Assembly (NCBI RefSeq): GCF_001632365.1 | Contig: NW_024468533.1 | Span: 250,058 to 314,057 of the forward strand | Reading direction: 5' to 3' | Origin: Laetiporus sulphureus 93-53 | Taxonomy: Eukaryota; Basidiomycota; Agaricomycetes; Polyporales; Laetiporaceae | DNA: 64,000 bases | Part shown: positions 1-36,853 of the stretch, piece after piece | How positions within the stretch are numbered: the stretch's first letter is position 1 | Layout: each line of letters begins with the position of its first letter | The notes under the pieces: model-generated | Told to the model about the DNA's origin: nothing | The model's input: only the letters and a program-made list of their open reading frames with translations | Databases searched by the model: none | Translations under genes and position numbers: made by a program

Positions 1-1815
1 TTCTCCCCATTATCGCTCTGCAGTTCCTTGATGGAGTTGACACCTCGGTGAGCCTTCACCCATGAGCTGTAGGCCTTGTACTGTGTGAGTACATCGCTTT
101 TGCGGGCAATAGGGCATACAACTGCCTCGTCTGAGTAGTCGTCGGTGAAGGAGACATAGTACTCCTTGCCACCGAGGGACTTCACCGGCGCTTTCCCCCA
201 GACATCCGTGTGCACGCGCTGACCATACGCGATTACTTGCGGGCTCGAGCGCACCTTCGAGAATGACTCACGGGTCTGCTTCGCCTTTATGCAAGGTTCG
301 CAGAACTTGGTGGTCATGTCCTCGAGTCATACTCTGGTGACGACATTAGCCTCAACCATCTTCTTGAGGGCAGGGACATAGGCATGGGCCATGCGTTGAT
401 GGAACTCAGTGAGTGATAGCATTACCGTTAATGCTGTCTCCTTCACAGGCGCTGATGGGACTGGCGATCCGGGTAGCAGGTACAGACCGTTGCGCTCGGC
501 GGCTACAAACATGGTGGTACCTCGAGGAGAGATGACATGGCACCCGTCGTGCTCGAAACAGATGGTGTAGCCAGCCTTTGTAGTGCGGCTAATGAAGATG
601 AGGGCGAAAGGCATAGACGGCGCATAGAGAACGTCGCATAGGGTAAACTTGACTGTCTTTCCCTTGTGCATAGTAGCGAGCGACGCAGACGTCACCTTCA
701 CCAGTGGCATAAAAGACACGGCCATCAGCTGATGTGATCGGCTTGCATTCGATCTCCCGGAATGTGGTAAAAAACGAGTGTACTGGATTGAAGTGTCGGC
801 TTGCACCTGAATCGAGGATCCGGGTGAGCTTCGGGAGCTTCGCTCCCTCGACCTTCGAAAAATTAATCGCAATGGTGAATGCGAATGCCTCGTCATTGCC
901 TGTTGTTACCGCATTTGCACTGGCTCCCCCTGAGCCCTTGTCGTGCTTCCTCCCTCTGTTCTTGCTCCATGGCCCTTGGCCCTCTTTTCCACCATCTTTC
1001 ACCCAGCAGTCCGCTTTCAGATGGCCAGGCTTATTGCAATTGCTGCACGTCTTCCTCACGTCCTTTCCACCTGACCTCGTCATGAGCACGGAGTCTTCTG
1101 CAGTGTTCTGCGACTCATCCAGGGTGAACTTGTCACGTGCGACTGAGTAGATCTGGTGTAAGAGTTCATCGGATGTGATGGTGGGAGTGGGAGTTGTGGT
1201 GGTGCCAGTAGCCTGGATGGAAGCCAGGTGAGCAGCTGAGAGGATGGTGCATATGACAGGGCGATAAGACTCCAGGAGGCAGCTGATGATGAGCACGTGG
1301 TATTGCTTGTCGTCAAGAACACCGCCAGCTGTCGTGAATTCGGCCTTAAGCTTCTGGAGCTTATCTAGGGTTGGTCGAGGGTCCTTCTCCTCGGTGCAGC
1401 AGAGAGCATGCATGCGTCAGAGCAGTTCAGCCTGGACGAAGTCACCGCGATTGTCATACTCAGTGTTGACTATCTTCCAAGCTCCAGACACCTTCTTCTC
1501 GGGGATAATCCGGAGTTTCAGCATTTCCGGTAGCGTCTGGTACAGAAGCGTTTTGATCACCTCATGTCCGGCTGCCCATGTGTTGTATGCATCCGCGTAT
1601 GCCTCATCTGCATCGGAATCCACCCCTGGAGCCGTGGGTGCAGTAGGCTCCTTGTCACGGCCATCGAGATATCGCGCCAGCTTCTTTGCCGTCACGGCGG
1701 ACCTGAGTTGCTCCTTATAGAGCACCCAGTTTGATCCATCTTCCGCAAGGCAGGGGATCCTGACTGATGATTCATGATTGCTGAGCGACATCTCGTAGTG
1801 GCCGGTGGGGCTCAT
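1..1815 (-). pseudogene. Copia gag-pol reading frame, broken
   Basis: The start is the ATG at 1815 or the one at 1791 (MSLSNHESS). Gag has DGSNWVLYKEQL. A CCHC zinc knuckle follows (CSNCNKPGHLKADCW, near 1050). The aspartic protease motif ILDSGASRHF lies near 800, then the pre-integrase domain (FHQRMAH, near 400). The integrase core shows its first two catalytic Asp in VHTDVWG (near 205) and QSDNGE (near 15). Damage: an in-frame TGA near 1416 between AELL and RMHAL, a frameshift near 680 in the protease-to-integrase linker, and an in-frame TGA near 327 between VVTRV and LEDM. Both stops read naturally as former CGA (Arg) codons. The integrase zinc-binding part (CEPCIKAKQ) is still readable after the last stop. 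Confidence 0.85.
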
Positions 1816-1868
1816 AACCTGTAAACGGATGGAAAAGGAGTGGACAGGAGGACACACGCTAGAGTCAA

Positions 1869-2009
1869 AGGCTTCAGCTCCTTGATGATAGAAGGACTAT
1901 ATTAGTAGTATGTACCTAGAGTCAACTACGATACATTAGTATGTAAGCTGCATTCATGCAGGACAGTATCGGTACTCATAGGCTTCAGCTCCTTGATGAT
2001 AGAAGGACT
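1869..2009. repeat. 30-bp direct repeat pair in the retroelement leader
   Basis: The 30 bases at 1869-1898 recur without change at 1980-2009, a spacing of 111 bp. They lie between the presumed LTR start (2132) and gag (1815), so they may be a leader or LTR-internal duplication. I could not place the LTR 3' end or the primer binding site. Confidence 0.8.
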
Positions 2010-14605: not shown

Positions 14606-16070
14606 ATGACTCCGTCGCACTACAACCGTATCATCCTCGTACAGAGACCCACAGGGCCCGTGGATTCGTCCACCTTTCGACAGGAAACCCTGCCTTTTGA
14701 CCTTAAGCCTGGAGATGGCCAAGTCCTCATACGCATCCAATATCTCTCCGTTGATCCTGCGCTGCGCATGCTGCTCGACGATATAAAGTCATTTACCACG
14801 CCGACGCAGATAGGCGAACCCGTCCGGTGCATAGGGGTCGGCACTGTTGTCGAGTCCGGCAAGAACAGCCCTCTTGTCCCGGGTGACATCGTTAGCGGAT
14901 TTGTCGGTGAGCGATCTGTCTATGCACTCTTGGCCTACAAAGTGCAGTCGCTGATGAAGAAACGTAGGATGGACGGAGTATGTCGTAGCTGATGCCGAAC
15001 AGTTCACCAAGGTCGTGTAGGTTGTCACAAAAATGTGCTCACTAGCAGACACTTCCTGAGCTTTGTCAAGTGTACCAGATGACGCTAATATTGTCGACGC
15101 GTTAGGAGCCCTGGGCCATATCGGTTTGTGTTTTAGCTCTTGTTTCGGAGCTATGCTCACAAACCGTGCACAGGGCTCACTGCTTACTTCGTGTGTCGAA
15201 CGTTATTGCGTCACCGGGCCAACCTACTCACAGCGCTCGATCCAGGGTCTCATAGATGTCGGCAAAATCCAGGCCGGCGAGACTCTGCTCGTCTCCGCTG
15301 CCGCAGGGGCCACCGGATCGCTCGTCTGCCAGCTCGGTCTTGCGAAAGGCGCCAAAGTCTACGGCATTGCGGGCTCGCAGGCTAAGTGCGAATATCTCGA
15401 GAAGACGGTCGGCGTGACCAAGGCGTTCAACTACAAGAGCCCGACATTCCACGAGGCCCTCGCCAAAGAGATTGGCGGCTTCGATTTGTTCTTTGACAAT
15501 GTCGGCGGAGATATGCTCGACTTTGCACTGACGCTGATGAACACGCATGCGCGTGTCGTGTTGTGCGGTAAGATGAGTCCACGCCTCTCGTCCTCATTGA
15601 CTGACAACTCCTCTATGCGATGATACAGGAAGCATTTCTGAGTACAGTAAGCATCTTCACGTTTCACCGACCGTGCTGTCTTGATAAATTGTCCATGATA
15701 GACTCGACGCAGCTCAAGCCGCTTACGAACCACGTCCAGCTGCGCATGAAGCGTGCCAAGATGGAGGGATTCAGTTTGTAAGTACTAACGCCACCACGTT
15801 CAGCCGACACCTCTCCCACGCGTCGTCATTCTGCAGAATCGACTATCTCCCGCGCTTAGCCGAAGGCAAACAGTATCTGGCGGAACTGATGAAGCAAGGG
15901 AAGTTGAAACAGCAATATCATATCGTCAATGGTCTGGAGAACGCGCCGAAGGCGCTGGGCATGCTATTCACTGGCGAGAACAAAGGGAAGCTGTACGTCC
16001 TTTGACAGCGGAAACGTCTGTTCTGTGGGCTGACTGAGGTTCTCTTAGCATTTTGAAGGTGGCAGATTGA
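14606..16070 (+). CDS. NADP-dependent MDR oxidoreductase (leukotriene B4 dehydrogenase / CurA type)
   Basis: The start MTPSHYNRIILVQRPTGPVD is the first ATG after the TATA box. The N-terminal GroES-like part has YLSVDPALRML and GEPVRCIGVGTVVESG. The Rossmann part has the nucleotide motif AAAGATGSLVCQLG (near 15300), then GAKVYGIAGS and FDLFFDNVGGDML, the usual run for zinc-independent medium-chain reductases acting on enones or alkenals. At least seven introns occur, among them ones near 15122-15177 and 15570-15625. The last exon is very short: the splice after GKL joins ILKVAD and a stop at 16068-16070. Everything from about 15950, including the last intron and the 3' UTR, has been copied several times downstream (see the tandem array). 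This copy appears intact. Confidence 0.88.
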
Positions 16071-16644
16071 TGAGATATCAAGGTCTTTTGAAGCGTCTGT
16101 ATTTGTATTGCGGCTCGTGTAACCTCATAAACCACTTCGAAATCGTCGGTCTTGATGTATAAATTCGCCAGGTATGGCCTTAGCCAAGCAGCTCTGCGGT
16201 TATGTAGTGCTTCTGGATCCTCGTTTTGTGCACGCAGCTACTAACACTGCTGTGCGGGAGGCACGCCACTGAGAGCCGGAAGTCTCATCCAAGTCGTTAT
16301 TGATGTTGCCTGCTGGCTGGTTTGAAGATTTCTCGTGCAATCGCCTTCGATTTCCGGCTGACCGCCATAGCACCCTGCACGCGTTGATGATGCCCCTTCT
16401 CAGCTCTCGATGTCGTCGAATGACATGTCAATGATCGTCGGACTCAAGGCTCGAAAATAAATCTACGAAAAGAGACGGTTCGTACCCTGCTGCCCTATCC
16501 AACAAATCTTACGTCGTGACAACGCAGCGTACCCGTCTATACGTCAGATTCCCTCCCTTTCGGGTATGTTTACATCAACACCATGACTCCACTGTGCCAA
16601 TTCAGCTTCTGCGCTGCTCGCAGGTAGAATAACAAAAGAATTTA

Positions 16645-17074
16645 TTAGTTCTTCGACTTCGCAGTTCCCTTTGCCGTCCCCTTTGCGGCCAGTTTTTTGG
16701 CCTGTTTTTTTTTTGGCCTAAAGAACACACTGATTAATCTGAGAATAAGAAATACACGCACGGCTCTACACCTCACCGGAGACGATGCCGCTTTGACAGG
16801 AACCGAGCCTTTGACTGCAGTGGGTTTATTTTCTTAGCCTACGGTCAGTGGTTACGGTTCAGCCCTTCCTTGGTCCACTTATGTAGGTTGGCTCGGCCAT
16901 CGATGCTGACCGTAGGTGTAGGTTAACCTTCCTCACAGAATCGGATGTCCTCGTGATCTTAGGATGTGCTTTGGTGGATGCTCCCGTTGCCGCTGCAGTT
17001 ATCGTCTGCGTGACGGTCGTATTGCGCACGTTGATGAGGTTCACGGCGGTGACACCCAGCTTGAACGAGGACAT
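16645..17074 (-). pseudogene. Lys/Ala-rich small protein family, copy 1, probably decayed
   Basis: The layout matches the three-exon members: exon 1 from MSSFKLGVTAVNL (17074), a middle exon near 16790-16855 (SVPVKAASS in its sisters) and a last exon ending KGTAKGTAKSKN. Relative to copy 2, exon 1 has 5 extra bases just before the donor, whose sequence is GTCAGC instead of GTGAGT or GTGAGC. The middle exon has 4 extra bases near its start, and the donor after it follows CCG where sisters have CAG. Joining at the family splice sites meets a stop in the middle exon. Another splice choice could rescue it, so decay is likely but not proven. Confidence 0.6.
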
Positions 17075-17164
17075 GTTTCTTATCGATCTCAAGCGCTAGC
17101 AAGACGTTCAGCGAGGATTTAGCTTGTGCTTATGGGGGATGAAGAGAGGGCTGCTGCTGGGGTG

Positions 17165-17184
17165 ATGCACATCCTTTATCTGCC
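17165..17184 (-). promoter_or_regulatory. Conserved upstream element of the small-gene family
   Basis: The minus strand has GGCAGATAAAGGATGTGC about 90 bp upstream of the small-gene ATG. The same block occurs at about the same distance upstream of copies 2, 3, 4 (as GCCGCAGATAAAGG) and 5, near 18070, 19525, 20515 and 21487. The AGATAAAG core could serve as a TATA-like box. Copy 6 lacks it. It is shared by descent, so conservation alone does not prove function. Confidence 0.4.
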
Positions 17185-17677
17185 GAAATACTGCCGCATG
17201 TGAGCAGCAGGAGATGAAAGAAGCCGAGGAGGCGCTTTCTTCAACGTGCATGTCGCGTTTTGGTCCCTCATAATGGCAACGCCTCGGACTGGGAATGCTG
17301 TTCACCGGCGAGAACAAACGAAAGCCGTACGTCCTTTGACAGCTGAATGGTCTGTTCTGTGGGTGGCTGACCGTCATACTAAGGCACGCTGCAAGCGTTG
17401 ATGATGACTTCTCTGAGTCAATGTCCGGAATGAGTCTGACAAGTCAACGCGTCGTCTGGTTCTAAACCAGAGAAGAAAATTACAAAAAGTGACGGTTTGT
17501 ACTCTGCTGCCCTATCCAACAAAGTGTACGCCTTGACAATGCAGCGTAGTACGCGCCTACACACCAGATTTCCTCCCTTTTCGATATTTTGGACATCAAT
17601 TCCATGACTCTGGCGGTCCAATTCAGCCTCTTACTGCTCGCAGGCTGCGCGTAGAATAATTCGTGCAGAATAGTCCT

Positions 17678-17978
17678 TTAAAGCTTCGACATCGCCATTT
17701 CCTTCGGAGCCGGAGTCTTGGCGACGACTTTGACTGCAGTGGGCTTTTTACCCTACATCGGTAGTTATTCAGCCCTTAGTCCACTCGTCTAGGTTGGCAC
17801 GGCCATCTGTACTCACCGTAGGCATAACCTTCTTCACAGAATCGGATGTCTTCTCCGGCGTAGGAGGAGTATCGGTATCAGTGGATGTTCCCGTTGCCGT
17901 TGCAGTTATCGTCTGCGTGACGGTCGTATTGCGCACGGAACGGAGGTTCACGGTGACATTCAGGTTGAACGAGGACAT
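17678..17978 (-). CDS. Lys/Ala-rich small protein family, copy 2 (two-exon form, 78 aa)
   Basis: I do not recognise the family. Exon 1 is 17817-17978 and exon 2 is 17678-17752, joined by GTGAGT..GTAG. The start is the ATG of MSSFNLNVTVNL; the frame extends upstream only through non-ATG codons. Exon 1 gives a beta-prone N-terminus, a Thr-rich stretch (NTTVTQTITATATGTSTDTD) and SDSVKKVMPT. Exon 2 gives one 20-residue unit, PTAVKVVAKTPAPKEMAMSK, then Leu and stop. The intron would read on as STDGRANL..EWTKG, which is tempting as coding but is bounded by clean splice sites in every copy. No signal peptide or membrane segment. The predicted product is small and basic. Confidence 0.65.
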
Positions 17979-19027
17979 GTTTCTTATCGGCGTCAAGCGC
18001 TGGCAGGACGTTCAGCGAGGATTTAGCTTGTGCTGACGGTGGATGAAGAGAGGAATGTTGTTGGGGCGAGGCACATCCTTTATCTGCCGAAATACTGCCG
18101 CATGTGAGCAGCAGGAGATGAAAGAAGCCGAGGAGACGCTTTCTTCAACGTGCATATCGCGGTCTGGTCCCTCAAGATGGCAACGTTTCCGACACTGGGA
18201 ATGCTGTTCACCGGCGAGAACAAAGGCCCGAAGCCGTACGCCCTTTCACAACGGAATGGTCTGTTCTGTGGGCTGACTGAGGTTCTCCCAGCATTGTGAA
18301 AGTGGCAGATTGATGAGACATCAAGATCATCTTCTGAAGCATCTGTATTTGTATTGCGGCTCGTGCAACCTCCTGAAACAGAGCTCAGGACGTCCACCAG
18401 CTACTTCAAAATCATTAGTCTTGACGTATCAGTCCGCTAGGTATGATCTTAGCCCAGCAGCCTCAGCTCGTTACGATCAACACAGGTCGCCGCGCAACTC
18501 TGACTGACGCACATCGCGAATGCGGTGCTGCTCGCGCAGCCAAGTGCATATCGCCCGAATGAGTTCCACAAGCGGATGTCGGTTGAACACGGACCCCGCT
18601 GCAGTTATGTATTGCTTCTGGATCCTCGTTTTGTTTAGACAGCGCCCAACACGGCTGTGCAGGTTTGAGAGCCGGAAACCTCATTCATGCAAAATTGTTC
18701 TTAATATTCCATGCTGACTGGTTTGAAGGCTTTTCATGCGATCACCTTCATCACCGGGGAATGCACGCGTTGTTCCTGGCGTTCTTAAACTTTGTACCGG
18801 AACGATAAGTCAATGGATCATCGGATTCAAGACTCGAGAATGATATTACGAAAAGAGGCGGTTCGTGCCTTGTTGGCCTATCCAACAAATTGTACGCCGT
18901 GACAATACGGCGAATGCGTCCGTACGTCAGATTCCCTCCCATTCGGTAATGTTAACATCGACATCATCACTGTATCGTGTCAACTCAGCTTCTGCGCCGC
19001 TCGCAGGTAGAATAACAACATACTCTG

Positions 19028-19444
19028 TTAGTGCTTCGACTTCGCAGCCCCCTTCGCTGCCTCGTTCGCGGCCGGCGTCTTGGCACCGGCCGGCCTTTTG
19101 GCCTGAAGAACACAATAAACTCCCGAATATGAAATGCACGCACGGCTCTATGCCTCACCTGAGACGATGCCGCTTTGACAGGAACCGAGCCTTTGACTGC
19201 AGTGGGCTTCTTAGCCTACGGCCAGTGGTTGTTCAGCCTCTTCCTTGGTCCACTCATGTAGGTTGGCTGGGCCATCTATGCTCACCCTAGGCGTAGATGC
19301 AGCTTTCTTTACAGAATCGGATGTCTTCGTGGTCGTTGGATGAGTAGAGGAGGATTGTCCCGCTGGTGTTCTTGCCTGCGTGACGGTCGTATTGTGCACG
19401 TTACTGACGTTCACGGTGACATTCAGCTTGAACGGGAAGGCCAT
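19028..19444 (-). CDS. Lys/Ala-rich small protein family, copy 3 (three-exon form, 96 aa)
   Basis: Exons are 19286-19444, 19159-19215 and 19028-19102, with GT..AG introns and an open frame throughout. I chose the ATG of MAFPFKLNVTVNVSNVHNTT by comparison with the other copies; another ATG lies 15 bases upstream. The Thr-rich section is shorter than in the two-exon form. The middle exon reads KKPTAVKGSVPVKAASSQ. The last exon is a Lys/Ala tail (AKRPAGAKTPAANEAAKGAA then KSKH). Such tails resemble histone H1-type tails in composition only; no globular H1 domain is present. Function unknown. Confidence 0.65.
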
Positions 19445-19677
19445 GTTCCTTATCGACATCAAGGTACCGGCAGGACTTGTGCTGATGGTGGATGAAGGGA
19501 AGAATGTTGCTGGGGTGAGGCACATCCTTTATCTGCCGAAACACTGCCGCATGTGAGGAGCACGAGAGGAAAGAAGCCCGCCGAGGCGCTTTCTTCAACG
19601 TGCATGCCGCGTTTTGGTTCCTAAAGATAGCAGCGCCTCACACTGGGCATGCCGGCCACCGCGACAACAAGGGGAAG

Positions 19678-19807
19678 CTGCACGCACTTTGACAGAGAAA
19701 TGGTCTGTTCTGAGGCCCCATGATGCCCTCTAGGCTGAGTTCCTGCACGCACTTTGACAGAGAAATGGTCTGTTCTGAGGCACCATGATGCCCTCTAGGC
19801 TGAGTTC
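19678..19807. repeat. 65-bp tandem duplication inside array unit 4
   Basis: The 65 bases at 19678-19742 (CTGCACGCACTTTGACAGAG onward) are repeated at 19743-19807 with one visible change. The sequence is a degraded copy of the oxidoreductase-tail segment. Confidence 0.8.
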
Positions 19808-20057
19808 TCAGTACCCGGAATGACAAGCAAATGCGTCGACGGGTTCTAAACCAAAAAGACAATTACAATAAGTGATGGTTCGTACCCTGCTACCCTGCCC
19901 AACAAAGTCTATGCCTTGACAATGTGGCATATGTGCCTATACTTCAGATTGCCTCCCTTTTCAATATTTTGACATCAAATCCATGACTCTGACGCTCCGA
20001 TTCAGCTTCTGCACTGCTCGCAGACTGCGCGTAGGATCATTCATGCAGAATAGTCCT

Positions 20058-20418
20058 TTAAAGCCTCGACATCGCCATTTCCTTCGCGGCCGGAGTTTTA
20101 GCAGCGGCTTTGGCCGCAGTGGGCCTCGACATCGCCATTTCCTTCGGGGACGCAGTGTTAGCAGCGGCCTTGACTTCAGTAGGCTTCTTAACCTACATCG
20201 GTAGTTGTTCAGCCCTTGGTCCACTCGTATAGGTTGGCACGGCCATCTGTACTCACCGTAGGCATAACCTTCTTCACATAATCAGATGTCTTCTCGGTCG
20301 TAGGATGTGTATCGGTATCGGTGGATGTTGCCGTTGCAGTCGCAGTTATCGTCTGCGTGACGGTCGTAGTGCGCACGTTAGGGAGGTTTATGGTGACATC
20401 CACCTTGAACGAGGCCAT
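20058..20418 (-). CDS. Lys/Ala-rich small protein family, copy 4 (two-exon form, 98 aa)
   Basis: Exon 1 is 20257-20418 (MASFKVDVTINLPNVRTTTV onward) and exon 2 is 20058-20192. Exon 2 contains two adjacent 20-residue units, PTEVKAAANTASPKEMAMSR and PTAAKAAAKTPAAKEMAMSR, where copy 2 has one. So the tail grew by an exact 60-bp in-frame duplication. Exon 1 closely resembles copies 2 and 5. Splice signals are GTGAGT and GTAG. Function unknown. Confidence 0.65.
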
Positions 20419-21030
20419 GTTTCTTATTGACGTCAAGCGCTGGCAGGACGTTCAGCGAGGACTTAGCCTGTACCGATGGTGGATGAAGAGAGGAATGTTG
20501 TTGGGGTGAGGCACATCCTTTATCTGCGGCAACACTGCTGCATGTGAGGAGCACGAGAGGAAAGAAGCCGAGGAGGCGCTTTCAGCTCAACGTGCACGTC
20601 GCGTTCTGATCCCTCATAATGGCAACGCCTCCTCTGGGAACGCTGTTCGCCGGCGAGAACAAAGGCCTGAAGCCGCATGCTCTTTGACAGCGGAATGGTC
20701 TGTTCTGTGGGTGGCCGACCGTCAGTCATACTAGTAGGCGCCCTGCACGCATTGATGATGCCCTCTCCGAGCTCTCAATACCCCGGAATGACAAGTCAGC
20801 GCGTCGTCGGGTTCTAAACTAGAGAAGTAAATTACGAAAAGCGACCATTCGTACCCTGCTACTTTGTTCAACAAAGTGTACCCCTTTACAATGCGGCATA
20901 TGCGCCTATACGTCCGAAAACTCCTTCCCTTTTCGATATTTTGGACATCAACCCCATTACTCTAGCACTCCGATTCAGCGTCTGCACTGCTCACAGGCCG
21001 CGCGTAGGATATCCCATGCGGAATAGTCCT

Positions 21031-21391
21031 TCAAAGCCTCGACATCGCCATTTCCTTCGCGGCCGGGATTTTGGCAGCGGCTTTGACTGCAGTGGGCTTC
21101 GATATCGCCATTTCCTTCGCGGCCGGAGTTTTGGCGGGGGCTTTGACTGCAATGGACTTGTTAACCTACATCGATCGTTGTTAAGCCCTTGGTCCACTCG
21201 TATAGGTTGGCACGGCTATCTGTGCTCACCGTAGGCGTGACCTTCTTCACAGAATCGGATGTCTTCTCCGTCGTAGGAGGGGTATCGGTATCGGTGGATG
21301 TTGACGTTGCAGTTGCAGTTATCGTCTGCGTGACGGTCGAAGTGCGCACATTAGGGAGGCTCACGGTGACATTCAGGCAGAACGAGGACAT
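21031..21391 (-). CDS. Lys/Ala-rich small protein family, copy 5 (two-exon form, 98 aa)
   Basis: Exon 1 is 21230-21391 (MSSFCLNVTVSLPNVRTSTV onward) and exon 2 is 21031-21165. Two 20-residue units again fill exon 2: SIAVKAPAKTPAAKEMAISK and PTAVKAAAKIPAAKEMAMSR. The two-unit state is shared with neighbouring copy 4, so the 60-bp duplication probably came before the duplication that made these two genes. Donor is GTGAGC, acceptor GTAG. Function unknown. Confidence 0.65.
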
Positions 21392-22189
21392 GTTTCTTAT
21401 CGACCTCAAGTGCTGGCTGAACGTTCAGCGAGGATTTAGCTTGTGCTTATGGGGGATGAAGAGAGGGCTGCTGCTGGGGTGATGCACATCCTTTATCTGC
21501 CGAAATACTGCCGCATGTGAGGAGCACGAGAGGAAAGAAGCCGAGGAGACGTTTTCTTCAACGTGCATATCGCGGTCTGGTCTCTCAAGATGGAAACACC
21601 TCGCACTGGGAATGCTGTTTACCGGCGAGAACAAAGGCCCGAACCCGTACGTTATTTGACAGCGGAATGGTCTGTTCTGTGACTTAGTGTGAATATCTCG
21701 GCATTGTGGAGGCGGCAGATTGATAAAATACCAGAACCTTCTGAAATCGCCTGTATTTGTATTGCGGCTCGTGCAACCTCCTGAAACAGAGTTCAGGATG
21801 TCCATCAGGTCCATCGAAATCGTCAGTGTTAATGTATCAAAGCTGGATATGACCTTAGCCAAGCAGCAGCTCACTACGATCAACGCAGGTGCTGCTTGCG
21901 TAGCCAAGTGCACATCGCACGAATGAGTTCCGTAAACAGCTGTCAGTTGAACACAAGCGCTGCAGTTATGTATTGCTTGTTAATCCTCATGGTGTTCAGG
22001 CAGCGTGAAACACGGCTCCGCAGTATGCACAAAACTGAGGGCCGGAGATCTACACCCAACTCGTTATTGATATTGCCCGCCGGCTGGTTCGAAGGCCTCC
22101 CGTGCGATCACGCTCGATTTCCGGATAACCGTCATAGGCGCCTCCTGCTCGCACATTGCACGTAGAATAACCCACACGAAATAGTCCTT

Positions 22190-22704
22190 TCAACGCTCCG
22201 ATTTCACCGTGACCTTAGTCGTCTCCTTCGCGGCTGCCTTTGCCGTTCCCTTCGCGGCCCCTTTTGCCGTTCCCTTCGCGGCTTCCTTTGTCGTTGCCTT
22301 CGCAGCCCCCTTTGCTGTTCCCTTCGCAGCGGTCTTCGCAGCGGTCTTAGCAGCGGCCAGCTTTTTGGGCTGAATTACACGATAAAAGTGTGAATACGAT
22401 GTGCACGCATGGTTCTATGACTCACCTGAGACGACGTAGCTTTGGCAGGAACTGATCCCTTGGCTGCGGCGGGCTTCTTAGCCTACGTTCGGTGGTCCTT
22501 CTTAGTCCACTAATATAGGTTGGCTCGACCATCTCTGCTCACCGTAGGCTTAGATGTAACCTTCTTCGCAGAATTGGATGCCTTCGCGGCAGTAGAACGA
22601 GCAGAGCTCGAAGATTGTCGCGCTGGTGGTCTCGCCTGCGTGACGATCATATCGTGCACGTTGCTGACGTTTACCGTGACATTCAGCTTGATCGGGGAGG
22701 CCAT
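22190..22704 (-). CDS. Lys/Ala-rich small protein family, copy 6 (three-exon form, 132 aa)
   Basis: Exons are 22543-22704, 22426-22482 and 22190-22369, open throughout. The start is MASPIKLNVTVNVSNVHDMI. Exon 2 reads AKKPAAAKGSVPAKATSSQ. Exon 3 is the longest tail in the family: 59 residues of nearly perfect four-residue periodicity, x-x-x-K with Ala, Thr or Gly between (TAAK, GTAK, GAAK, ATTK, EAAK and so on), ending VTVKSER. Lys every fourth residue on an Ala-rich background predicts a long, strongly charged helix, or a disordered nucleic-acid-binding tail. The last member of the array; its promoter flank differs from the others. Confidence 0.68.
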
Positions 22705-22770
22705 GTTCCTTATCGGCACAAAGCACTGGCAGGTCGTTCAACGAAGGTTTAGCCTGTGCTGATGGTGGAT

Positions 22771-25298
22771 GAAGAGAGGATGTTCAAGCTGGGGTGAGGC
22801 ACGTAGCACGGCCGCGTGCGTGGGAGGAGCACGAGATCTAGAGGAAAGAAGCGTGTTCTGGGCCAATGATCAATGTGGCAACGCCTCGCGCCGTGATGCC
22901 ATTGATTTGAATCGTTGTATTTCAATGCCTCTTCGAAGGTGGGTTGCATATGACGAGATGGTACCAGTCATGAAAAGCATCAATATTTGCCGCGTGCGCA
23001 CGAGTGGGCGGTATGGCATGCGCGATACAGGTTGGTGTGCTGGCTTTGTCAGCGGTTGCACATGTGCTTGAGCAGTAGGAAGCTCTATACCGATTTCGAT
23101 AGACGCAAGTGCTCGTTTGGCGATGGATATGCTCAACGGAAAAAACTCCTGGCTGCAGCTATTCAAACAGAATCCAACAGCTCATAGGTTTGTGGAGTTG
23201 GCGCACACGATCACATGATCGTGGTAATGGGGCGTCCGTGATATCGGCAACAAGTTCATATTTCATCTCTCTGCTCGAGGTCTTTTTTTTCTCTTTGAGT
23301 ATTCTGGACATATATTTTGTCATCTCTCCTCAAGATCATTAGCAGCCACCTACGGGCAATGCTCTTGCCTCTCCGATGTCGAAACTACCGCCACCAACAA
23401 TATATAACACTCCACAGGAGATGGAGAACGGCCCGAGGAAAACGAGGAACGCTCCTCACATCACTACATCGGCAACAAACTCATCAACAGATACGGAAGA
23501 GAATGCTGAAGCTGCCGCGCATGCGCCAGAACCAAACTACTGAGGATCCGGCTTATTTGCATCAGCATAAAAAACCAATTTTTATTGATTGAACTGCCAT
23601 AATTTGCCTGGCGTTGAGCAGCATGAGAGGGGAAAGGAAAGACAAATTCTATATAGGCATGTGGCACCCGATGGCCACGAGGCCCATCCGTGCAAGTAGT
23701 CGCCATATCTACGTGGCCCAAATCTTTCGTATCCACGCTCGTCGTATGGTCGCTGAGGTTAAAGTCGCCCGTACGTACCTTACGATTCATGTCCCTTTTC
23801 ACGTTGCATGGACTGATGGCTTCCAGCACCCGATACAACCTTTTCTCGAATCATCAGACTTGCGTTCTGGTCCGACCACCACGGCCGTACGACCTAAGGC
23901 TATGTTTGTGAGATGCGGTCATTGCATTCCTATTATGAGCTCCTCGGAGTTAACGTCAAAGGTCCTGAGAACCTGACGCTCGGGTACCCAGCTCTCAGCT
24001 CTCAGCGCTCAACGTCCGTCGGGGTCGGGGTCGCACCGGCTCGGATCAGCATTTCTTCACCGAGGCTACCCCGAGGCTGTGAGCTCTTGCGGTTACTCGT
24101 GGTGTAAGACTTCGATTCTCTGTCATGTTGCGCAGGAGTACAGCCATGGCGTCACCACCCGTCTACGTGTTCATTCGGATCCGGGACGCGTCCTCCAGCC
24201 CTTGCCGAACTGGACGGCATTCAAGGATGTGTAAGCAAGGATCAAAGGTTGCTTGGCCTAGAACGCGTCGCGATGGCAGTTAGGCGGTCTTTCTAGTGCC
24301 CCAGAGTAGTATGCGATAGCCATTCGTGGCTCAATCGATCTTCATAGCCGCAGGTGAGCCAGATTCTGTTCGCCGTCGACATGCTGCTAAAATAAAATGT
24401 CATAATCACCGTCGGCTGGCCAGGCTGGTGCTGATTTACAAACACCGCTGTCCCGCAGTATTCACGCCCAGCGCTATATAAGCCAGATCGGACGGATGAT
24501 CGCAAGCAATTGTGCGGACATGAAGCTGTGTCGTGCGTCTGAGTCCTTGACAGCTGCCGGATAGGCTGGATAATACAGACTCTCGGTAGGGTGCCCGAGG
24601 CCAGCATCCCTTGACTGACATCGCATAGCGCTTCATACGTGCTAGAGCCTATACGGAAGTCGTGACGCGTGAACCCTCTGACCAGCAGCTCGGGGGTTGA
24701 ACTGGCCTGACCGGTGCTTCTTCGCGAGATTCTCTGGGAAAGCATCCGAGAGAGCGCCGATACATCGAACAACGGAGGTACCTGCCAGAACGCATTTTTG
24801 GCGGGCTCATCCACTCGCAAGGTCGATGGTAGGATCAAGCTTTGTCTATGTTTGGCCTGCCTCCAGGAAATGTTGCCACATGATGGTGGGTCGCAATCTC
24901 CTTTAGCACGCCACAAAGCACGACTCAGAACTGCATCTTCGTATAGTTCTATTCATGGCATGCTAGATCTGATGTCGTTGTCGCGATCACTGACCAGAAT
25001 ATCATTGGCCATGCAGTTCGGCGATGGTTCGGTCATGCCGTTGTATCAGCCCGATGTGGTTCAATGCGTGGAGCAAGCATGAGGCAGTTGCGTATGGTGT
25101 CTCGCCGAGGGAAGAGGTTCTCAGAACGGTACTGTATTGTCTATGCCGGTTGCAACCCGGGCCTCCACAAGAAAGATTCTCCTACCTCGGTGTGTTTCAC
25201 TCTTGAACTAGTAAGTATATCTGTCAACTTTGACGTTACGTACATCAGTGGTGTTGAGACCGGGCGCTCAATTGATAATCTTCTGCGCGCGAGAAAGC
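22771..25298. other. 2.5-kb region without a supported gene
   Basis: Only short open frames occur, with no recognisable motif or consistent splicing. The first 100 bases still resemble the promoter flank of the array units; the rest looks like unique intergenic sequence. Confidence 0.45.
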
Positions 25299-25305: not shown

Positions 25306-25366
25306 CCAAGGCCTGTTCTGAGGTGCACCCCAACTTACTCTGATTGATTTCACCAGCTCGCAAGTT

Positions 25367-28300
25367 ATGGCTACTGTTGATATTCCGCTTTCTCCTCCTC
25401 TCGATGGCTCCATCCCTGTGCTTCCCGGATTCTTGGACTTCCATGCACAGCACAATCCTACTCGTCCTATGTATCACCTAATCTCTGAGGACGAGAAACT
25501 TAGCAACACGACAATATCCTTCCAGCAGTTTGCATACGCCACGCACCGGGTAGCCCGTCTCTTCCACTCGATACATTCAACACCTGGAAGGCCTGTGGTC
25601 GCTTTGTTGATAAACTGCGATACAGTCCTCTACCATGCACTATTAGTTGGCCTGGTGCGCGCAGGTCTCGTCCCGTTCCCCATAATGCCTCGCAATTCCG
25701 CTCCTGCGGTTCTCAACATGCTCGAGCGCATCGGCTGTCATCATGTCATATTCCAGCCTACGTTTGCGCACCTCGTCGATGCTGTCCGGTCATCAAACAC
25801 AGAATACCAAGTGCACGTTCATGACCTGCCAGATATCACCGACATCTTTCCGGAACTCGTCAACTCCTCTGTCACTGAGGTCCCTGAAGCATACACGATG
25901 CCTGCTCCGCCCTCGCCGTCTGATGTTCTATTCTATCTTCACTCATCTGGGTCCACGGGCTTTCCAAAACCCATCCCTCAGACACGGAACACTTTGTTAT
26001 CCTGGTCTCGATCGTCGTCTCTTGTGGATGCCAGAGATCGGGGCTTGCATTTCGGTCCCATGGCACTGCCCGCGTTCCACACGCTTGGGGTCATCATTCA
26101 ATTGTGTGCTCCCCTCGTGTCCGGTCAATACGCTGCCTTGTTCTTTCCTCGAGCACATCGTTCGCTGCCACCGTTGGTCCCAACTCCGGAGAATACTGTT
26201 GCGGCTGCACGCCGTGCGCGCATCGACGTGCTCGTCTTCGTTCCTACATTTCTCGAAGTAAGCTTACCTTCTCTGCCATGTTGTTTTGTATCTGATGAAC
26301 GTTGCGAATAGGCCTTGGCAAGAGACGACAAAAGCGTACAGTACCTCGCATCACTACCCGCGGTGGTAAGTCCGGACATATATTCGTGAAGTCCGCCTTG
26401 TGTTTACGCTCCTTGGAACTGCTAGTGCTTCAGCGGCGGTCCTCTAGCTGATGCTACGGGAGCAACACTAGTATCCGCAGGTGTCAATTTGTATCCAATA
26501 TACGGCGGTACCGAGTTCGGTGCGCCTGTGCGCATATTCGACTTTGATGATGACCCGAACAACACATGCGCTGTCAAGAGCAAGGCGCGCATTGATTGGA
26601 AATATATGCAAATAGTCAAGGAATGCAATCCGCGCTGGGTGCCACAGGGCAATGGTACGTACGAGCTGCAGTTTCTGGTACGTCGACTCTCACTTGCTCC
26701 TCGAAATTGATGAGTGACCGTCCTTCGAACGTAGTCTTGTCCCGGACATCAGTTGGGCGTGGAAAATCTTCCAAATGGCGAGCATGGATATGCAACGTCT
26801 GACCTATGGGAGCCACACCCATCAAAGCCAGGCCTCTGGCGAATGTATGTATCTGAATCTCATTACGTCTTATGCCCCATCATTTAATGCTGATTTCTCA
26901 TCTTCAGCGTTGGTCGCAAAGACGACCTCATCATCCTCAGTACAGGCAAGTATTCATCATGATCTCGTCTGCAGTGTTTTAAAACCTCATCGTTGAACTG
27001 TCAGGCGAGAAAGTAACGGTCGAACAAGAATACTCTATCGGTTCGAGCCCCTTAGTGCAGGGAGCTCTCATGTTTGGGCGAGGTCGCGCGCAAATCGGGC
27101 TGCTTGTTGAGCCCCAACCAAATGTAGCGATTTCTCCGCAAGACGAGTCGGTGCTTGCTCAGTTTCGGAATGCTCTATGGTGAGCTGATGGTCCATGACA
27201 TCTTCCTGACCGCAACTCATGTCCACATGTGCAGGCCGGACGTGGAAAAGGCTAATCGCGTGATGCCGGCATTCGCTCGCATTTACAAGGAGATGATTCT
27301 GGTGACGGACGCGTCGCGTCCCTTGGTTCGTGCGGGGAAAGGAACGGTCATACGCGCCCCATCACTCGCACTGTACGAGAAGGAAATCAATGCTCTGTGA
27401 GTATATATCCCCTTCTGCAATTGCCACATCTTTGAGACTCACGGCACTCCTTGAACGCAGCTATGAAGCAGTAGAGCAAAGCTCGAGTTCCGATGCCGCT
27501 CACCCACCACCTTCCTGGAAAGGGTCAGATCTAACGAGTTGGCTGATCGATCAAGCGACATTGTTGAATGATCACCGGTCGATTGACAAATCCAGAGATC
27601 TCTTCGAGCAAGGGTTTGACAGGTATGGAATACAAATGTTCCATGAACGTTATACTGTGCCCGCTCATGCTTAGTTGTTTCAGCCTCAGTGCAACCTTCT
27701 TGCGCAACAAGATCATAGGCGCACTCCGAGCGTCGCCCGACCCTGCGGCCAGCTCTGCTGCCCTTGAGATTCACTCCGACTTTGTCTTCTCTCATCCCAC
27801 AGTGGGTGAACTCGCTGATGCGATCTCCAAGCTAGTGCATCCGGAAGAGTCTACCAGCATGCATACGCAATCTCCAGAAGAGCAAATAGCCACGCTAGTA
27901 GAGAAATATACCGCCAGCTTGCCACCAGCGCCCAAGTTTGACAACGTTGACCGTTCTCGTCATGCAGTCGTTATGATCACTGGAACGACCGGGAATGTAG
28001 GAGCAAACGTTCTTGCTCAAGCTCTCGCGAACGAGCGAGTGTCGCGTGTCGTTGCGGTCAACCGCGGTTCATCTCTGTTGGAGCGGCATCGAAAGACGTT
28101 TGCTGCTGCTAAAGTGCCTCTTGAACTTCTCTCAAATAGGAAGCTCGTTCTCTTGGGAGTCGATTTTGATAGGGATGACCTAGGGCTGGAAGAAGCTGTC
28201 CTTCAAGAGGTACGCTGTAATCTCGCTCGTATGCGGTCATCTGCTAAGTGGTTCCCCTACAGCTTCGTTCTTCCGTGACACACGTTGTCCACTCAGCGTG

Positions 28301-29316
28301 GCGAGTGGACTTCAATTTGAAGCTTTCCTCCTTTGAAAGCAACATCAGTGCCGTAGTGCGACTCATGACAGCGCTACCGAGAGCACATCTCATCTTCACA
28401 TCCTCCATCTCCGCTGTACAGTCATGGAATATGGCAGAACGCGGTCCGATTGTACCGGAAAGGCCTATTGAAGATTCGGCTGTAGCTGCCGGAACTGGGT
28501 ACGGGATGTCAAAGTATGTTGTCGAGCAGGTATGTGCAATCCTCCATTGTGTATGCATGCAGTATGATTGAACCTGCTTGACTTGATAGATACTCTCCAA
28601 GGCCAATAGCGCTGGTTGGCGCACTACTGTCGTCCGCATTGGGCAGGTGTGTGGTTCGGCCGACACCGGTACGTGGAACACCGCAGAGTGGGTTCCGATC
28701 CTCGTCAAGAGTAGCATGGCTCTTGAATCCTTCCCTGCCATGGATGGGGTGAGTTCCTTCGTGTACTCTTGTAGTCTTATCGTTCACATCGTGGAACAGG
28801 CCGTCTCGTGGATTCCAATATCAGCGCTCGCCTCTAGCATCATGGATCTCGTGATGGCTGAGCACCCTCCCGAACTGATCAACTTGGCGCATCCTCGACC
28901 AATTCCATCTCACGACGTTTTCCATGCGATCGCCGTTGCTTTGGGGATTGATCTGCCCGTCATATCGATGGAGAGATGGATCGCCAAGCTTGAAGACTCT
29001 GCAAAGGACTCATCAATAAAGGGACTTTCCGACATCGTAAGTATCCTTCGCTATAGACAATGATGTTCTACGATCGGCACTCAATTCGATTGTGTAGCCT
29101 GCTATCAAATTGCTCGACTTCTTCCGAACTCGTGCCGTGCAAACGAAGGAGGCCCAAGATGCGGGCGTAGAAACCGTCGAAATGGGCGGCCTCCCCCTGA
29201 TGGCAACTTCTGAAGCCGTTCGAGCTTGTCCGACCCTCAAGGACCTGGAGCCCCTATCGCAGAAGCATGCATCAGCATGGGTGCGATTTTGGAGGAGCGA
29301 AGGCTTCATTGCGTGA
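25367..29316 (+). CDS. Adenylate-forming reductase (NRPS-like, A-T-R domains)
   Basis: The start MATVDIPLSPPLDGSIPVLP follows the TATA box. The adenylation domain has VVALLINCDTVLYHALLVGL and the A3-type motif YLHSSGSTGFPKPIPQT (near 25935), and continues with VNLYPIYGGTEFG (26490). The carrier domain has FEQGFDSLSAT, read across an intron near 27622-27685, with the Ser that takes phosphopantetheine. The reductase domain starts VVMITGTTGNVGANVLAQAL (27970), the NADPH site, and keeps the YGMSK catalytic pair near 28500. It ends VRFWRSEGFIA. About ten short introns occur. Such enzymes activate a carboxylic or amino acid and release it as aldehyde or alcohol. The domain set is complete and no break was seen. 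Substrate is not predictable by eye. No tailoring genes sit close by. Confidence 0.88.
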
Positions 29317-29548: not shown

Positions 29549-29986
29549 TCAATGCTTGGGTTTCGTCGTGACCTTCACGGACGTCTTGGTGACGGTCGAT
29601 TTCTTTGCCTAATGGCCATACTCAGTGCGTGTGCAAGAATGAGGATGTCAGGGAACTCTTACATGAGACGATGCACTCTTTGACGTTGTCGTAACGGTGT
29701 GAGCTTTCTTTACAGGAGTCGACGTCTTTGTCGCACTGGGCTTCTGACTCTGTTGTGAATAATAATCAATAATCTTAATCGAAAATGTGTCGTACCACAA
29801 GATGGAACTTACCGTAGGCTTAGCCTTCACCTTCACGACAGCATTCGAAGAATCAGACGGTTTCGCCGCAGTGTGGTGATGATTGGAGGAGGAGGACGGG
29901 CGTGCAGGCGTGACAACTCTGGTGAGAGAGTTATGTACGTGATTCACGTTTACTGATATTGACAGCTTTGGAATTGGAAAGATCAT
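29549..29986 (-). CDS. Lys/Ala-rich small protein family, dispersed copy 7 (three-exon form, 106 aa)
   Basis: Exons are 29813-29986, 29663-29749 and 29549-29608. The start is MIFPIPKLSISVNVNHVHNS; no in-frame ATG lies just upstream. Exon 1 ends VVKVKAKPT and has a short His run (SSSSNHHHTAAKPSD). The middle exon reads SQKPSATKTSTPVKKAH onward and the last gives AKKSTVTKTSVKVTTKPKH. The same phase-0 intron positions as array copies 3 and 6 show common descent despite strong divergence. It lies convergent to, and only 230 bp after, the A-T-R reductase gene. No oxidoreductase-tail fragment accompanies it. Function unknown. Confidence 0.62.
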
Positions 29987-33628: not shown

Positions 33629-35789
33629 ATGGGTGAGAGGCCTCTGAGCAGATTCCAGAACATCCGAGTCTATTGTGTGTACTGAAGTGTCTCCTGTTGT
33701 GATTCAGACTAATCAGGTCTCATCCAGGGCTCGCGTTCATCGTCTACTGGGGCATCATTTTGTTCGGATACGACACGTACGTCTGCGTGCCTTTCTAGCT
33801 TGTTGTTCGTGGCTGATCGGCAATCGCCAATAGTGGAGTTGGTGGTGGCGTCGTCGATCAAACGTACTTTCAGTCAGCATTTGGGCTCACCAACGCGGAT
33901 GGCTCGGTTAACACCGCAAAAGAGGACACTATTGCCTCGAATGTTGTCTCCGTGCTCCAAGCAGGCGCGTTCTTCGGTGCCATTGGCAGTGCGCCTATCT
34001 CTTGTAGGTCACCGCGACATACAGCCCTAGAGACAACCGTGCGAACTATGGCTGATCAACGTGGCTTGTAGCTGCTATCGGCCGCAAGTGGACTTTGTTC
34101 GCGTTCACGATGCTCTTTGCCGTGGGTGCGGTATGTCGTGACCCGCTATCTTTCTGCCTAGTACATACTTCTGATGATTTTTACGTCCGACAGATCCTGC
34201 AGACAGTCGCTGGCGGATCGCGTGGCATTGGCTACATCTACGGTGGTCGAGTAGTTGCTGGTGTTGGCATCGGCGCGATCTCTGCCGTGGCCCCGGCCTT
34301 TGTTTCGGAATGCAGCCCGAAAGATGTCCGTGGTCGCATCACTGGTCTATTCCAGATCATGGTCGCTATCGGTGTCATGATTTCGTATTTCATCAACCGT
34401 AAGTCCTTCAACTTTGTTTGCTTGTTGTCGTTCCTTTACAATGTTGTTGTCCTCCAGTTGGTATCAGTCTGCACATCCCCGACGGTCCAAAGGTGTGGCG
34501 CATCCCGTTCGGCTTCCAGCTCGTACCCGCCGGCATCATGGCCCTTGGTCTCCTCACCGTCAAGGAGTCGCCTCGATGGCTTGCGACGAAGGATCGTACC
34601 TCCGAGGCCCTCGCGAACTTGGCTTACCTTCGTCGTCTCCCGCCCGATGATGAGAGCGTGCTATCCGAGATGGCTGAGATTGAGGCTGCTATTGCGGAGG
34701 AGCGCGAGCTGCGCAAGGGCCTCGGCGTGAAGGAAGCCGTGTTTGGCAAGGGCAACTTTATCCGGTTCTTCATTGCCGTCGTCATCTTTATCCTCCAGCA
34801 ATGGGGCGGGCAGAACTCGGTCAATTACTATGCCCCGCAGATCTTCCAGTCGGTAAGTCGGGTGGACTTGCCGCTCCGAGGCCTGATCGATGATCCCTTG
34901 CTCACACACTCTCATCATTGCCCAGATCGGCTACTATGGAACCTCCAACTCGTTGCTGGCCTCGGGTATTTATGGCATCGTCAAGGTCGTGGCGACGATC
35001 ATCTTCGTGTTCTTCCTCGCAGACACCCTGGGTCGCAAGTGGTCGCTGCTCATATCTGCCCTCGGAATGGGCGTAATGTTCTTCATCGTCGGTGCACTTC
35101 TCAAGACGTATCCACCGGTGACAGATTCTGCGACGCCCTCGGTAGCGTCCAAGGCCATGGCCGCGATGCTATACATCTTTGTCTGTTTCTACTCGCTTGG
35201 TTGGGGTCCGTTGCCGTGAGCATCTAGTACATTGGTATCAGAGATAAGTGCTAACATCCATGCAGATGGGTCTACGTTGCAGACATCTTCCCGACGAGAA
35301 CCAGACACTATGGTCTCGCCACTGCCAGCGCGTCCCAGTGGCTCTTTAGTAAGTGATCCCATGTCTCATAAAGCGAGCCAGGCTGCTGATCGCTGTCCCG
35401 CCAGACTTCGTGTTGTCGAAGGTGACGCCAACGCTTGTGACTGAGATGGGCTACAAGATCTTCCTCATGTTCGCGACCATCGACATCGCCGGTCTGGCTG
35501 TCTTCTCTGCGTGAGTTTACGACTCTTTACCAGCGAATCGCAAAAGATGACGTATGTGCTATTCCTTTCAGCCTCATCCCAGAGACAAAAGGCCGCAGTC
35601 TAGAAGAGATGGACATCATCTTCGGCTCCGTTTCGGCAGATCGGCGCGAGGCAGAGATCAAGCGACAAGAAAGAGGTGCGGTTGCCTTCATCTATGCTTA
35701 ATGATCCCGTACTCACTGAAATCCGTGCAGTCCTGGAAAAAGAGGTCAACGAAACGACATCTGTACAGTCTGTGGAGGCCAAGGTCTAA
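33629..35789 (+). CDS. MFS sugar/quinate-type transporter
   Basis: The start MGERPLSRFQNIRVYC is followed by an intron and then FIVYWGIILFGYDTGVGGGV, the first helix with the family GYD motif. Then come GAFFGAIGSAP, IGRKWTLF, YGGRVVAGVGIGAISAVAP (34230), SECSPKDVRGRITGLFQ, the central loop KESPRWLA, FILQQWGGQNSVNYYAPQIF (34790), DTLGRKWSLL and, near the end, LIPETKGRSLEEMD. These are the sugar-porter signatures in order. Twelve helices can be counted. At least eight introns split it. The GG-rich first helix resembles quinate and hexose transporters of filamentous fungi; substrate is open. It ends SVQSVEAKV. Intact. Confidence 0.9.
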
Positions 35790-36073
35790 GGAGTGCTCTC
35801 TATTGCTGAGGAGCGTAGGCTCCGTACCTACGCGCGCCGCATGTCCTTCTATGTATGCTGTACGAGTAATGACGTCGACGATCTTCATGCTTCTTTCTTG
35901 CATTGTATTTTTAAACCTTGCAACTATGTATCATAGTCAATCTACATAATATCCAGTATGAATAACGTTCGAGTGAGCGCCCATCATTTATGATGGTATC
36001 ATGCGCGCGCACACCACGACTCGGACGCAAGGTCATCAGCAAGACGGCACGATGAACACGCTGCATTACAAGA

Positions 36074-36079
36074 TATAAA
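36074..36079 (+). promoter_or_regulatory. TATA box of the methyltransferase gene
   Basis: TATAAA lies about 100 bp upstream of the ATG at 36176. Confidence 0.55.
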
Positions 36080-36175
36080 TGTTTTCCTACCTGATTGTGG
36101 CGTCCTCTTCATATCGCACACTACGCGCCCACAGCCACAGCCGCTCACAGCCCTACCTCTATTAACGCGACTCGG

Positions 36176-36853
36176 ATGGACCCGTCCGCTCGATATTACA
36201 CGCCCTGGCTCCTACGCTTTTACGACGTCGGCATCCTCACGCTCACGAACCTCTTCATCTGGCGCTGCCCAACGAAATCCGTGCTCCTCCCCTTCTTCCA
36301 AAAGCACATCGGCGAGAATGCCCACCTCGATGTGGGAGTCGGAACGGGCTACTTGCCCGCACACTCCGCGCCTCAGCTCGCAAAGACGAAGAACGTCACC
36401 TTCCTCGACCTGAACCCGAACACGCTGGAGACCGCTGAGGCTCGCCTGCGTGCGGCGGGGTACAAGGGGTCGATCGATAAGGTGCAGCAGAGCGTGTTCG
36501 ACCCTCTCCCCGAGTCCTTGCACGACAAGTTCGACTCCATCTCGATGTTCTATCTGCTCCATTGCCTTCCTGGTGCCTTCCCGGTGAAGGCGAGCCACGT
36601 ATTTGCCCAGCTGTCGAGGGGATTGGCACCGGGCGGCGTGCTGTATGGCTCGACGGTTTTGGGACGGAGCGCGGACCACAACATATGGGGAAGGATCCTC
36701 GTGCGGCTGTACAACAACCTTGGATCATTCGGAAATGTAGATGATAGCTTCGAGAATCTGGAGAAGGCATTGAGAGGCCAGTTTGAGGAGGTTGAGGTTG
36801 AGCAGGTCGGGGTTGTCGCGCTTTTTGTAGCGCGGAAACCTATTCGATCGTGA
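36176..36853 (+). CDS. Class I SAM-dependent methyltransferase, intronless
   Basis: I start at MDPSARYYTPWLLRFYDVGI; the frame is open further upstream but without an ATG. Motif I is HLDVGVGTGYLP (36330), the acidic residue after beta-2 is in VTFLDLNPNTLETA, and the later motifs are FDSISMFYLLHCLPG and LSRGLAPGGVLYGSTVLG. The N-terminal YDVGILTLTNLFIWRCPT is typical of small fungal methyltransferases found near biosynthetic genes. Length (225 aa) is usual for the fold. No intron is needed, which is unusual in this window. It has the same orientation as the sugar transporter and starts about 390 bp after it. Substrate unknown. Confidence 0.85.
   Translation: MDPSARYYTPWLLRFYDVGILTLTNLFIWRCPTKSVLLPFFQKHIGENAHLDVGVGTGYLPAHSAPQLAKTKNVTFLDLNPNTLETAEARLRAAGYKGSIDKVQQSVFDPLPESLHDKFDSISMFYLLHCLPGAFPVKASHVFAQLSRGLAPGGVLYGSTVLGRSADHNIWGRILVRLYNNLGSFGNVDDSFENLEKALRGQFEEVEVEQVGVVALFVARKPIRS

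What the first reader, a model, noticed from the sequence alone, without database searches (positions are those of the whole stretch)
15950..22770. Tandem array pairing an oxidoreductase-gene tail with an unrelated small gene
Each of six units starts inside the last large exon of the MDR oxidoreductase (MLFTGENKG) and ends after the promoter of a convergent small gene. The parent enzyme gene is single and looks intact. So the duplicated block broke within a coding exon and carried a useless enzyme tail along, which suggests the small gene was what selection or recombination amplified. Tandem amplification of an orphan gene in a fungus is a hallmark of dosage demand or of diversification against a partner.
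Basis: partly seen in the sequence, partly recalled or inferred. Interest (0 to 1): 0.75.

Follow-up and report, generated by a model that had tools for sequence, protein, structure and literature searches.

The report
Old tandem array of small genes
In a wood-rotting mushroom, a small gene for a lysine-rich, probably unstructured protein was copied into a row of six together with a scrap of the enzyme gene next door; the row is real and looks old, but it is an ordinary kind of gene-family expansion and nothing yet shows what the protein does.

Summary
The array is real. The window is from Laetiporus sulphureus 93-53. Six minus-strand copies of one small gene (ATGs at 17074, 17978, 19444, 20418, 21391, 22704) lie between an intact MDR oxidoreductase gene and single-copy DNA. 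The five inner boundaries carry the same roughly 75-85 bp MDR tail joined to the small gene's upstream region; the rightmost copy keeps a tail-free flank. One founding tandem duplication, possibly at a 4-bp microhomology, followed by unequal exchange explains this. Corrections: (1) an older paralogue with the same intron positions lies outside the array at 29986-29549; (2) copy A is broken, B-F are open; (3) B, D and E form a derived type without intron 2; (4) the strain's deposited proteins include an 87% MDR paralogue; (5) B-F differ by 10-31% in exon 1, so the array is probably old. Coding is supported: 0 of 25 exon-1 gaps break frame against 24 of 34 non-coding gaps. The enzyme tail drifts like the intron, while an upstream block is the best conserved of six segments. 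Array dN/dS is 0.43-0.90, so no diversifying selection is shown; dosage is untested. Function unknown; a disordered nucleic-acid-binding polycation is my guess.

The parts
14606..16005 (+). Parent MDR oxidoreductase gene, 8 exons, 338 aa, intact
   Evidence: splice model with open frame; Pfam ADH_N_2 and ADH_zinc_N
15952..15955 (.). Left break of the founding duplication inside the last MDR exon (GCGC, possible microhomology)
   Evidence: junction read by eye
16500..17074 (-). Copy A, 3-exon type, broken (off-frame gap, early stop); 3' limit approximate
17289..17371 (+). MDR tail copy at the A/B boundary
17678..17978 (-). Copy B, derived 2-exon type, 78 aa (exons 17978-17817, 17752-17678); identical to deposited LAESUDRAFT_726686
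18195..18280 (+). MDR tail copy at the B/C boundary
19028..19444 (-). Copy C, 3-exon type, 96 aa (19444-19286, 19215-19159, 19102-19028); deposited LAESUDRAFT_813283 has 27 more residues at the N-terminus
19643..19717 (+). MDR tail copy at the C/D boundary; a 65-bp piece that starts in it is repeated in tandem at 19678-19807
20058..20418 (-). Copy D, 2-exon type, 98 aa (20418-20257, 20192-20058); identical to deposited LAESUDRAFT_726688
20634..20711 (+). MDR tail copy at the D/E boundary
21031..21391 (-). Copy E, 2-exon type, 98 aa (21391-21230, 21165-21031)
21476..21566 (-). Upstream block (-175 to -85 of copy E): best conserved of six segments compared in A-E; F has only a gapped, diverged counterpart
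21606..21683 (+). MDR tail copy at the E/F boundary
22190..22704 (-). Copy F, 3-exon type, 132 aa (22704-22543, 22482-22426, 22369-22190); tail-free upstream flank; branches first among the array copies in the tree
22888..22891 (.). Right break of the founding duplication upstream of copy F (GCGC); 22893-24300 is single-copy
29549..29986 (-). Paralogue G outside the array, 3 exons, 106 aa (29986-29813, 29749-29663, 29608-29549), both introns phase 0 at the same places

Best explanation
A small, old, fast-evolving gene family (G plus the array) expanded locally. An illegitimate tandem duplication joined the last MDR exon (15952) to the DNA about 187 bp upstream of the small gene (22891). It copied the small gene whole with its proximal upstream DNA and took the last 54 nt of MDR coding sequence plus the 3' side as a passenger. 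Unequal exchange and conversion between the repeats then raised the number to six, made mosaics, lost the 3' spacer and intron 2 in one lineage (B, D, E) and left one copy (A) to decay: ordinary birth-and-death evolution. The genes encode small basic Lys/Ala/Thr/Ser/Pro-rich proteins, probably largely disordered, without an evident signal peptide. My best guess for function is an intracellular polycation that binds nucleic acid or another polyanion (inferred; about 0.3). Shown: anatomy, shared junction, coding constraint, the older paralogue. Inferred: order of events, expression, function.
For: All five inner boundaries share one junction, so the founding event was probably single. F has no tail and a unique flank, and it branches first when G is the outgroup (UFBoot 90 in the protein tree of B-G, 80 in the exon-1 tree of A-G). 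Coding: 0 of 25 exon-1 gaps among B-F are off-frame against 24 of 34 in intron 1, 5' flank and tail (pairwise counts); G keeps both introns in place and phase and aligns with F at 159 against shuffles of 55.6 +/- 8.1; pN is below pS in 5 of 5 comparisons with G, while intron 1 of F and of C has no residual similarity to G's. Three copies are deposited as predicted proteins with the splice sites that I found. Mosaic: A groups with E in the 5' flank, with the B/D/E type in exon 1 and with C in intron 1. Disorder: AlphaFold2 mean pLDDT 49.4, no secondary structure; pI 9.9-11.5, net charge +6 to +24.
Against: None of the five junctions still reads GCGC, and a match of 4 bp or more has a chance of 0.016 at one random pair of points, so microhomology is suggestive only. 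The multiple alignment did not align the last part of F's upstream DNA with the copies; pairwise alignment does, with a gap of about 30 bp, to 22883-22889 in 4 of 5 comparisons (to 22934 with D), and only A, D and E exceed the best of 300 shuffles. Exon 1 diverges no less than intron 1 in A-E (0.177 and 0.171), so protein constraint inside the array is weak. E does not align with G above shuffles (65, best shuffle 79). Charge-hydropathy puts B, D and E slightly on the folded side. The fold had only three sequences in its alignment. No expression data.
Confidence: 0.72

Rival explanations
1. Amplification was driven by selection for more product (dosage).
For: Each unit carries a whole gene with proximal upstream DNA; B-F are open; the upstream block is the best conserved of six segments compared (0.075 against 0.170 tail and 0.177 exon 1).
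Against: Copy A is dead; three copies changed structure and charge; copies are divergent rather than homogenised. In Drosophila yakuba whole-gene tandem duplications showed little expression change (abstract of PMC5460883). Expression untested.
Confidence: 0.15
2. Diversification of the protein against a partner (arms race, effector-like).
For: Two structural types; a variable Thr/Ser/Asp-rich middle; exon 1 diverges as fast as intron 1.
Against: dN/dS is below 1 in 10 of 10 full-CDS pairs and in 9 of 10 exon-1 pairs; the exception (B-F, 1.32) is not significant. No strongly hydrophobic stretch (highest 15-residue Kyte-Doolittle mean 0.45-1.05), so classical secretion is unlikely; no dedicated predictor was run.
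Confidence: 0.08
3. Mostly neutral leftover: the family is functionally marginal and the array is drifting, with open frames kept partly by conversion from intact copies.
For: One dead copy, weak within-array constraint, mosaicism; only 3 of the 6 array copies were found among deposited proteins.
Against: Frame-keeping gaps 25 of 25; in a simulated neutral null the chance that one copy stays open is 0.059 at branch length 0.10 and 0.43 at 0.03 (independent copies, no conversion modelled); pN below pS against G; conserved upstream block.
Confidence: 0.25
4. Assembly artefact or a repeat-element array.
For: Repeats can be misassembled.
Against: Copies differ by up to about 30% with many indels, too much for misassembled copies of one sequence. 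In the held genome the repeat was found only here; no Rfam match in the window.
Confidence: 0.03

Closest known systems
Tandemly arrayed gene families under birth-and-death evolution (general model, recalled)
   Same: Local copies of one gene, a dead member, mosaics from exchange, structural divergence between members
   Different: Nothing in principle; for the small protein family itself I found no described relative
Tandem duplications that form chimeric or partial gene structures (Drosophila yakuba, PMC5460883, abstract read)
   Same: A tandem duplication that cuts into a neighbouring gene
   Different: Here the partial gene is a 3' tail without promoter or start that drifts; I saw no chimeric gene formed from it
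Histone H1 C-terminal tails (recalled) and ribosomal-protein segments (compositional resemblance)
   Same: Lys/Ala-rich low-complexity tail; the PDB search with copy F gives 3 sequences at E <= 1, all ribosomal proteins, at E 0.07-0.13
   Different: No globular linker-histone domain found, no significant Pfam match; the resemblance is compositional

Membership tests
Birth-and-death tandem gene family | Several linked copies of common descent, in tandem | tested here: met
Birth-and-death tandem gene family | Both open and decayed members | tested here: met
   B-F open, A broken
Birth-and-death tandem gene family | Copy number varies between strains or species | not testable with these tools
   only one strain's genome is held
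Linker histone H1 | Globular winged-helix domain (Pfam Linker_histone; name recalled) | tested here: not met
   no such Pfam match for B-G
Secreted effector | N-terminal signal peptide | tested here: inconclusive
   no strongly hydrophobic stretch by a Kyte-Doolittle window, which speaks against; no dedicated predictor was available
Peroxisomal matrix protein (PTS1) | C-terminal SKL-like tripeptide (consensus recalled) | tested here: inconclusive
   B ends SKL, D and E end SRL; C ends SKH, F SER, G PKH; localisation untested
Transposable element | Dispersed copies in the genome | tested here: not met
   all 10 DNA matches in the held assembly lie in the array (lower bound)

The most novel reading that the evidence does not exclude
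Within the array a sub-family (B, D, E) was re-tooled: an in-frame loss of intron 2 and its surroundings, a new Thr/Asp-rich middle, lower charge and a C-terminal SKL/SRL that would send the protein to peroxisomes, while A-E share an upstream element that copy F has only in diverged form and that was not found near paralogue G. The array would then be a case of a disordered polycation gaining a new compartment and new regulation after tandem duplication.
Probability: 0.08. Interest if true: 0.5.

Novelty: new member of a known kind. Interest (0 to 1): 0.27.

Why it matters
It is a readable example of how a single imprecise duplication founds a gene array: the shared broken enzyme tail marks the junctions as descendants of one event and gives a neutral yardstick inside the array. 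It also shows a small-protein family of which I found only 3 of the 6 array copies among deposited proteins (G was not searched for there), so families like this may be under-counted in fungi.

Tried and rejected
Reading through intron 1 (open in B, C, D and E, giving a DGRANLYEWTK-like end) was considered as a coding alternative. It was rejected as the main model because GT..AG ends can be placed in all six copies (copy A's donor has become GTCAG), F has a stop there, the deposited proteins for B, C and D splice it out, and G's intron 1 shows no similarity.

Relatives in other fungi: the profile search gave 3 proteins (7,997 candidates scored), all L. sulphureus 93-53; F residues 1-75 gave 1 protein among 41 candidates. 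One further weak match of the start of F in the genome (contig C16, E 0.11, 37% over 43 residues) was not followed up. Pfam: no match at E <= 1 for F, E and the intron-1-read-through form of B; at E <= 5 none for G, B and C and one for D (E 4.5). NCBIfam gave only matches far below cut-off, for F (3) and D (1). Rfam and tRNA searches of the window were empty.

Literature: seven searches, seen as capped listings (for example 15 of 81 papers, 12 of 34), listed no paper that names this array or family; LAESUDRAFT occurs in 0 papers. One abstract was read (PMC5460883). Dating was not attempted beyond spacer distances (JC 0.27-0.31): with recalled fungal rates of about 1e-9 to 1e-8 per site per year this is very roughly 14-150 million years, and conversion makes it more uncertain. 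CpG depletion was looked for and not seen: observed/expected 1.01 for the array, 1.02 for the window.
Full report
What is there. The window lies in a 506,282-bp contig of Laetiporus sulphureus 93-53, a brown-rot polypore: three deposited proteins of that strain come from a contig of this length and two of them are identical to copies B and D. The self-comparison shows six collinear repeats. Each holds a minus-strand gene with ATG at 17074 (A), 17978 (B), 19444 (C), 20418 (D), 21391 (E) and 22704 (F). To the left is an intact 8-exon MDR oxidoreductase gene of 338 aa. A DNA search of the held assembly (38.6 Mb, 124 contigs) gave 10 matches, all in this array (counts are lower bounds).

How it was made. 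At the five inner boundaries, DNA homologous to the last part of the MDR gene begins 199-217 bp upstream of the small gene's ATG, always at the same place in the MDR gene. Copy F continues instead into DNA that does not resemble the tail and is single-copy. So one junction was probably formed once and then multiplied. Homology of F's upstream DNA with the copies ends at 22883-22889 in 4 of 5 pairwise alignments and at 22934 in that with D; scores for A, D and E exceed the best of 300 shuffles, those for B and C do not. The two parental break sites, 15952-15955 and 22888-22891, both read GCGC. None of the five present junctions keeps exactly these four bases, and a shared run of 4 bp or more has a chance of 0.016 at a random pair of points, so microhomology-mediated joining is plausible, not shown. 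With G as outgroup F branches first (UFBoot 90 in the protein tree, 80 in the exon-1 tree). Copy A is a mosaic: nearest to E in the 5' flank (6 of 100 sites differ), but to C in intron 1 (5 of 69) (Fisher p 0.011 for A-E and 0.021 for A-C, flank against intron). Exchange between repeats therefore probably continued after the founding event.

Two gene types. A, C and F have three exons and a long 3' spacer; B, D and E have two exons and a short spacer (and the spacings from it). G also has three exons, so the two-exon type is derived, through loss of intron 2 with its surroundings.

A seventh member. Searching the genome with the start of F found one further significant match outside the array: gene G at 29986-29549, 106 aa, with both introns at the same positions and in phase 0. 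Its similarity to F (159; shuffles 55.6 +/- 8.1) and C (153; 54.4 +/- 8.0) is 12-13 standard deviations above shuffles; B (83) and D (84) exceed their best shuffle (76 each), E (65) does not (79). Synonymous sites are close to saturation between G and the array (pS 0.66-0.73) and pN is lower (0.38-0.49) in 5 of 5 comparisons; the protein-guided alignment favours this somewhat. Hence the family is older than the array and not an orphan of it.

Is it coding? Among B-F, 0 of 25 pairwise exon-1 gaps are off-frame against 24 of 34 gaps in intron 1, 5' flank and tail; pairs are not independent events. A neutral simulation gives a 5.9% chance that one copy stays open at branch length 0.10 and 43% at 0.03. 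Copy A shows what decay looks like. Within the array, dN/dS is 0.43-0.90 over the full CDS (10 pairs of B-F; the interval excludes equality in 4) and 0.53-1.32 in exon 1 (excludes equality in 0 of 10). Constraint on the protein is present but weak.

Passenger and promoter. In A-E the mean pairwise difference is 0.170 in the MDR tail, 0.233 at -214 to -176, 0.075 at -175 to -85, 0.150 at -84 to 0, 0.177 in exon 1 and 0.171 in intron 1. The block was chosen after looking at the profile, and linked columns or conversion can contribute; 0 of 5000 column shuffles were as low. With copy E's block as query, the genome search (E <= 10) finds A-E only; a 21-base core occurs with 0-1 mismatches only in A-E, and with 3 mismatches at five other places. 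F has a gapped, diverged counterpart. The enzyme tail thus behaves as a passenger, and the proximal upstream DNA as something retained or homogenised.

What the protein may be. B-G are 78-132 aa, pI 9.9-11.5, 59-72% Lys/Ala/Thr/Ser/Pro, with no strongly hydrophobic stretch. There is no Pfam match apart from one of D at E 4.5. An AlphaFold2 model of deposited copy C on a three-sequence alignment has mean pLDDT 49.4 and no secondary structure. Charge-hydropathy calls C, F and G disordered but B, D and E marginally folded. I infer an intracellular, largely disordered polycation; nucleic-acid or other polyanion binding is a guess from composition. The SKL/SRL ends of B, D and E resemble PTS1 signals (recalled), but C, F and G lack them.

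The anatomy was read correctly and well. Its causal part (dosage demand or arms race) is not supported by what can be measured here: no significant excess of dN over dS, a dead copy, and well-diverged copies. The age is only roughly bounded. The gene is not an array-only orphan, and the MDR gene is not alone in the strain: P0004 is 87% identical, from a 156,887-bp contig, and I did not find its gene in the held assembly, so copy counts for the genome are lower bounds.

Noticed in passing
window 327-1896 (-): Open frames with a zinc-knuckle-like motif and copia-like gag/pol features, read by eye without a family search; apparently a retrotransposon piece.
   Followed up: no
window 25322-29063 (+): Pieces of an NRPS-like adenylation-reductase gene (AMP-binding; NAD_binding_4, one piece above and one below cut-off) between the array and paralogue G; G is convergent to it, as the array is to the MDR gene.
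   Followed up: partly
window 34403-36853 and 54214-57655: Sugar transporter, methyltransferase, UbiA prenyltransferase and a second, weak AMP-binding match below cut-off; with the NRPS-like gene this may be a secondary-metabolite neighbourhood.
   Followed up: no
P0004 (deposited protein, contig of 156,887 bp): MDR paralogue 87% identical to the window's gene, with fully identical stretches at its residues 141-197 and near the C-terminus, a patchy identity that could mean conversion; its gene was not found in the held assembly.
   Followed up: partly
window 14606-16005: The window's own MDR protein was not among the 120 listed of 5,689 hits, although the best listed one (P0004) is from the same strain; it may lack a correct deposited model.
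   Followed up: no
window 19678-19807: A 65-bp tandem duplication at the C/D boundary, copies 98% alike, probably among the youngest events in the array.
   Followed up: no
window 22190-22369: The last exon of copy F holds 12/24/48-bp repeats coding for Lys/Ala-rich residues; tail length differs between copies in whole codons.
   Followed up: partly
G000:C16:199643-199771 (-), locus L037: Weak match to the start of copy F (E 0.11, 37% over 43 residues), perhaps chance.
   Followed up: no
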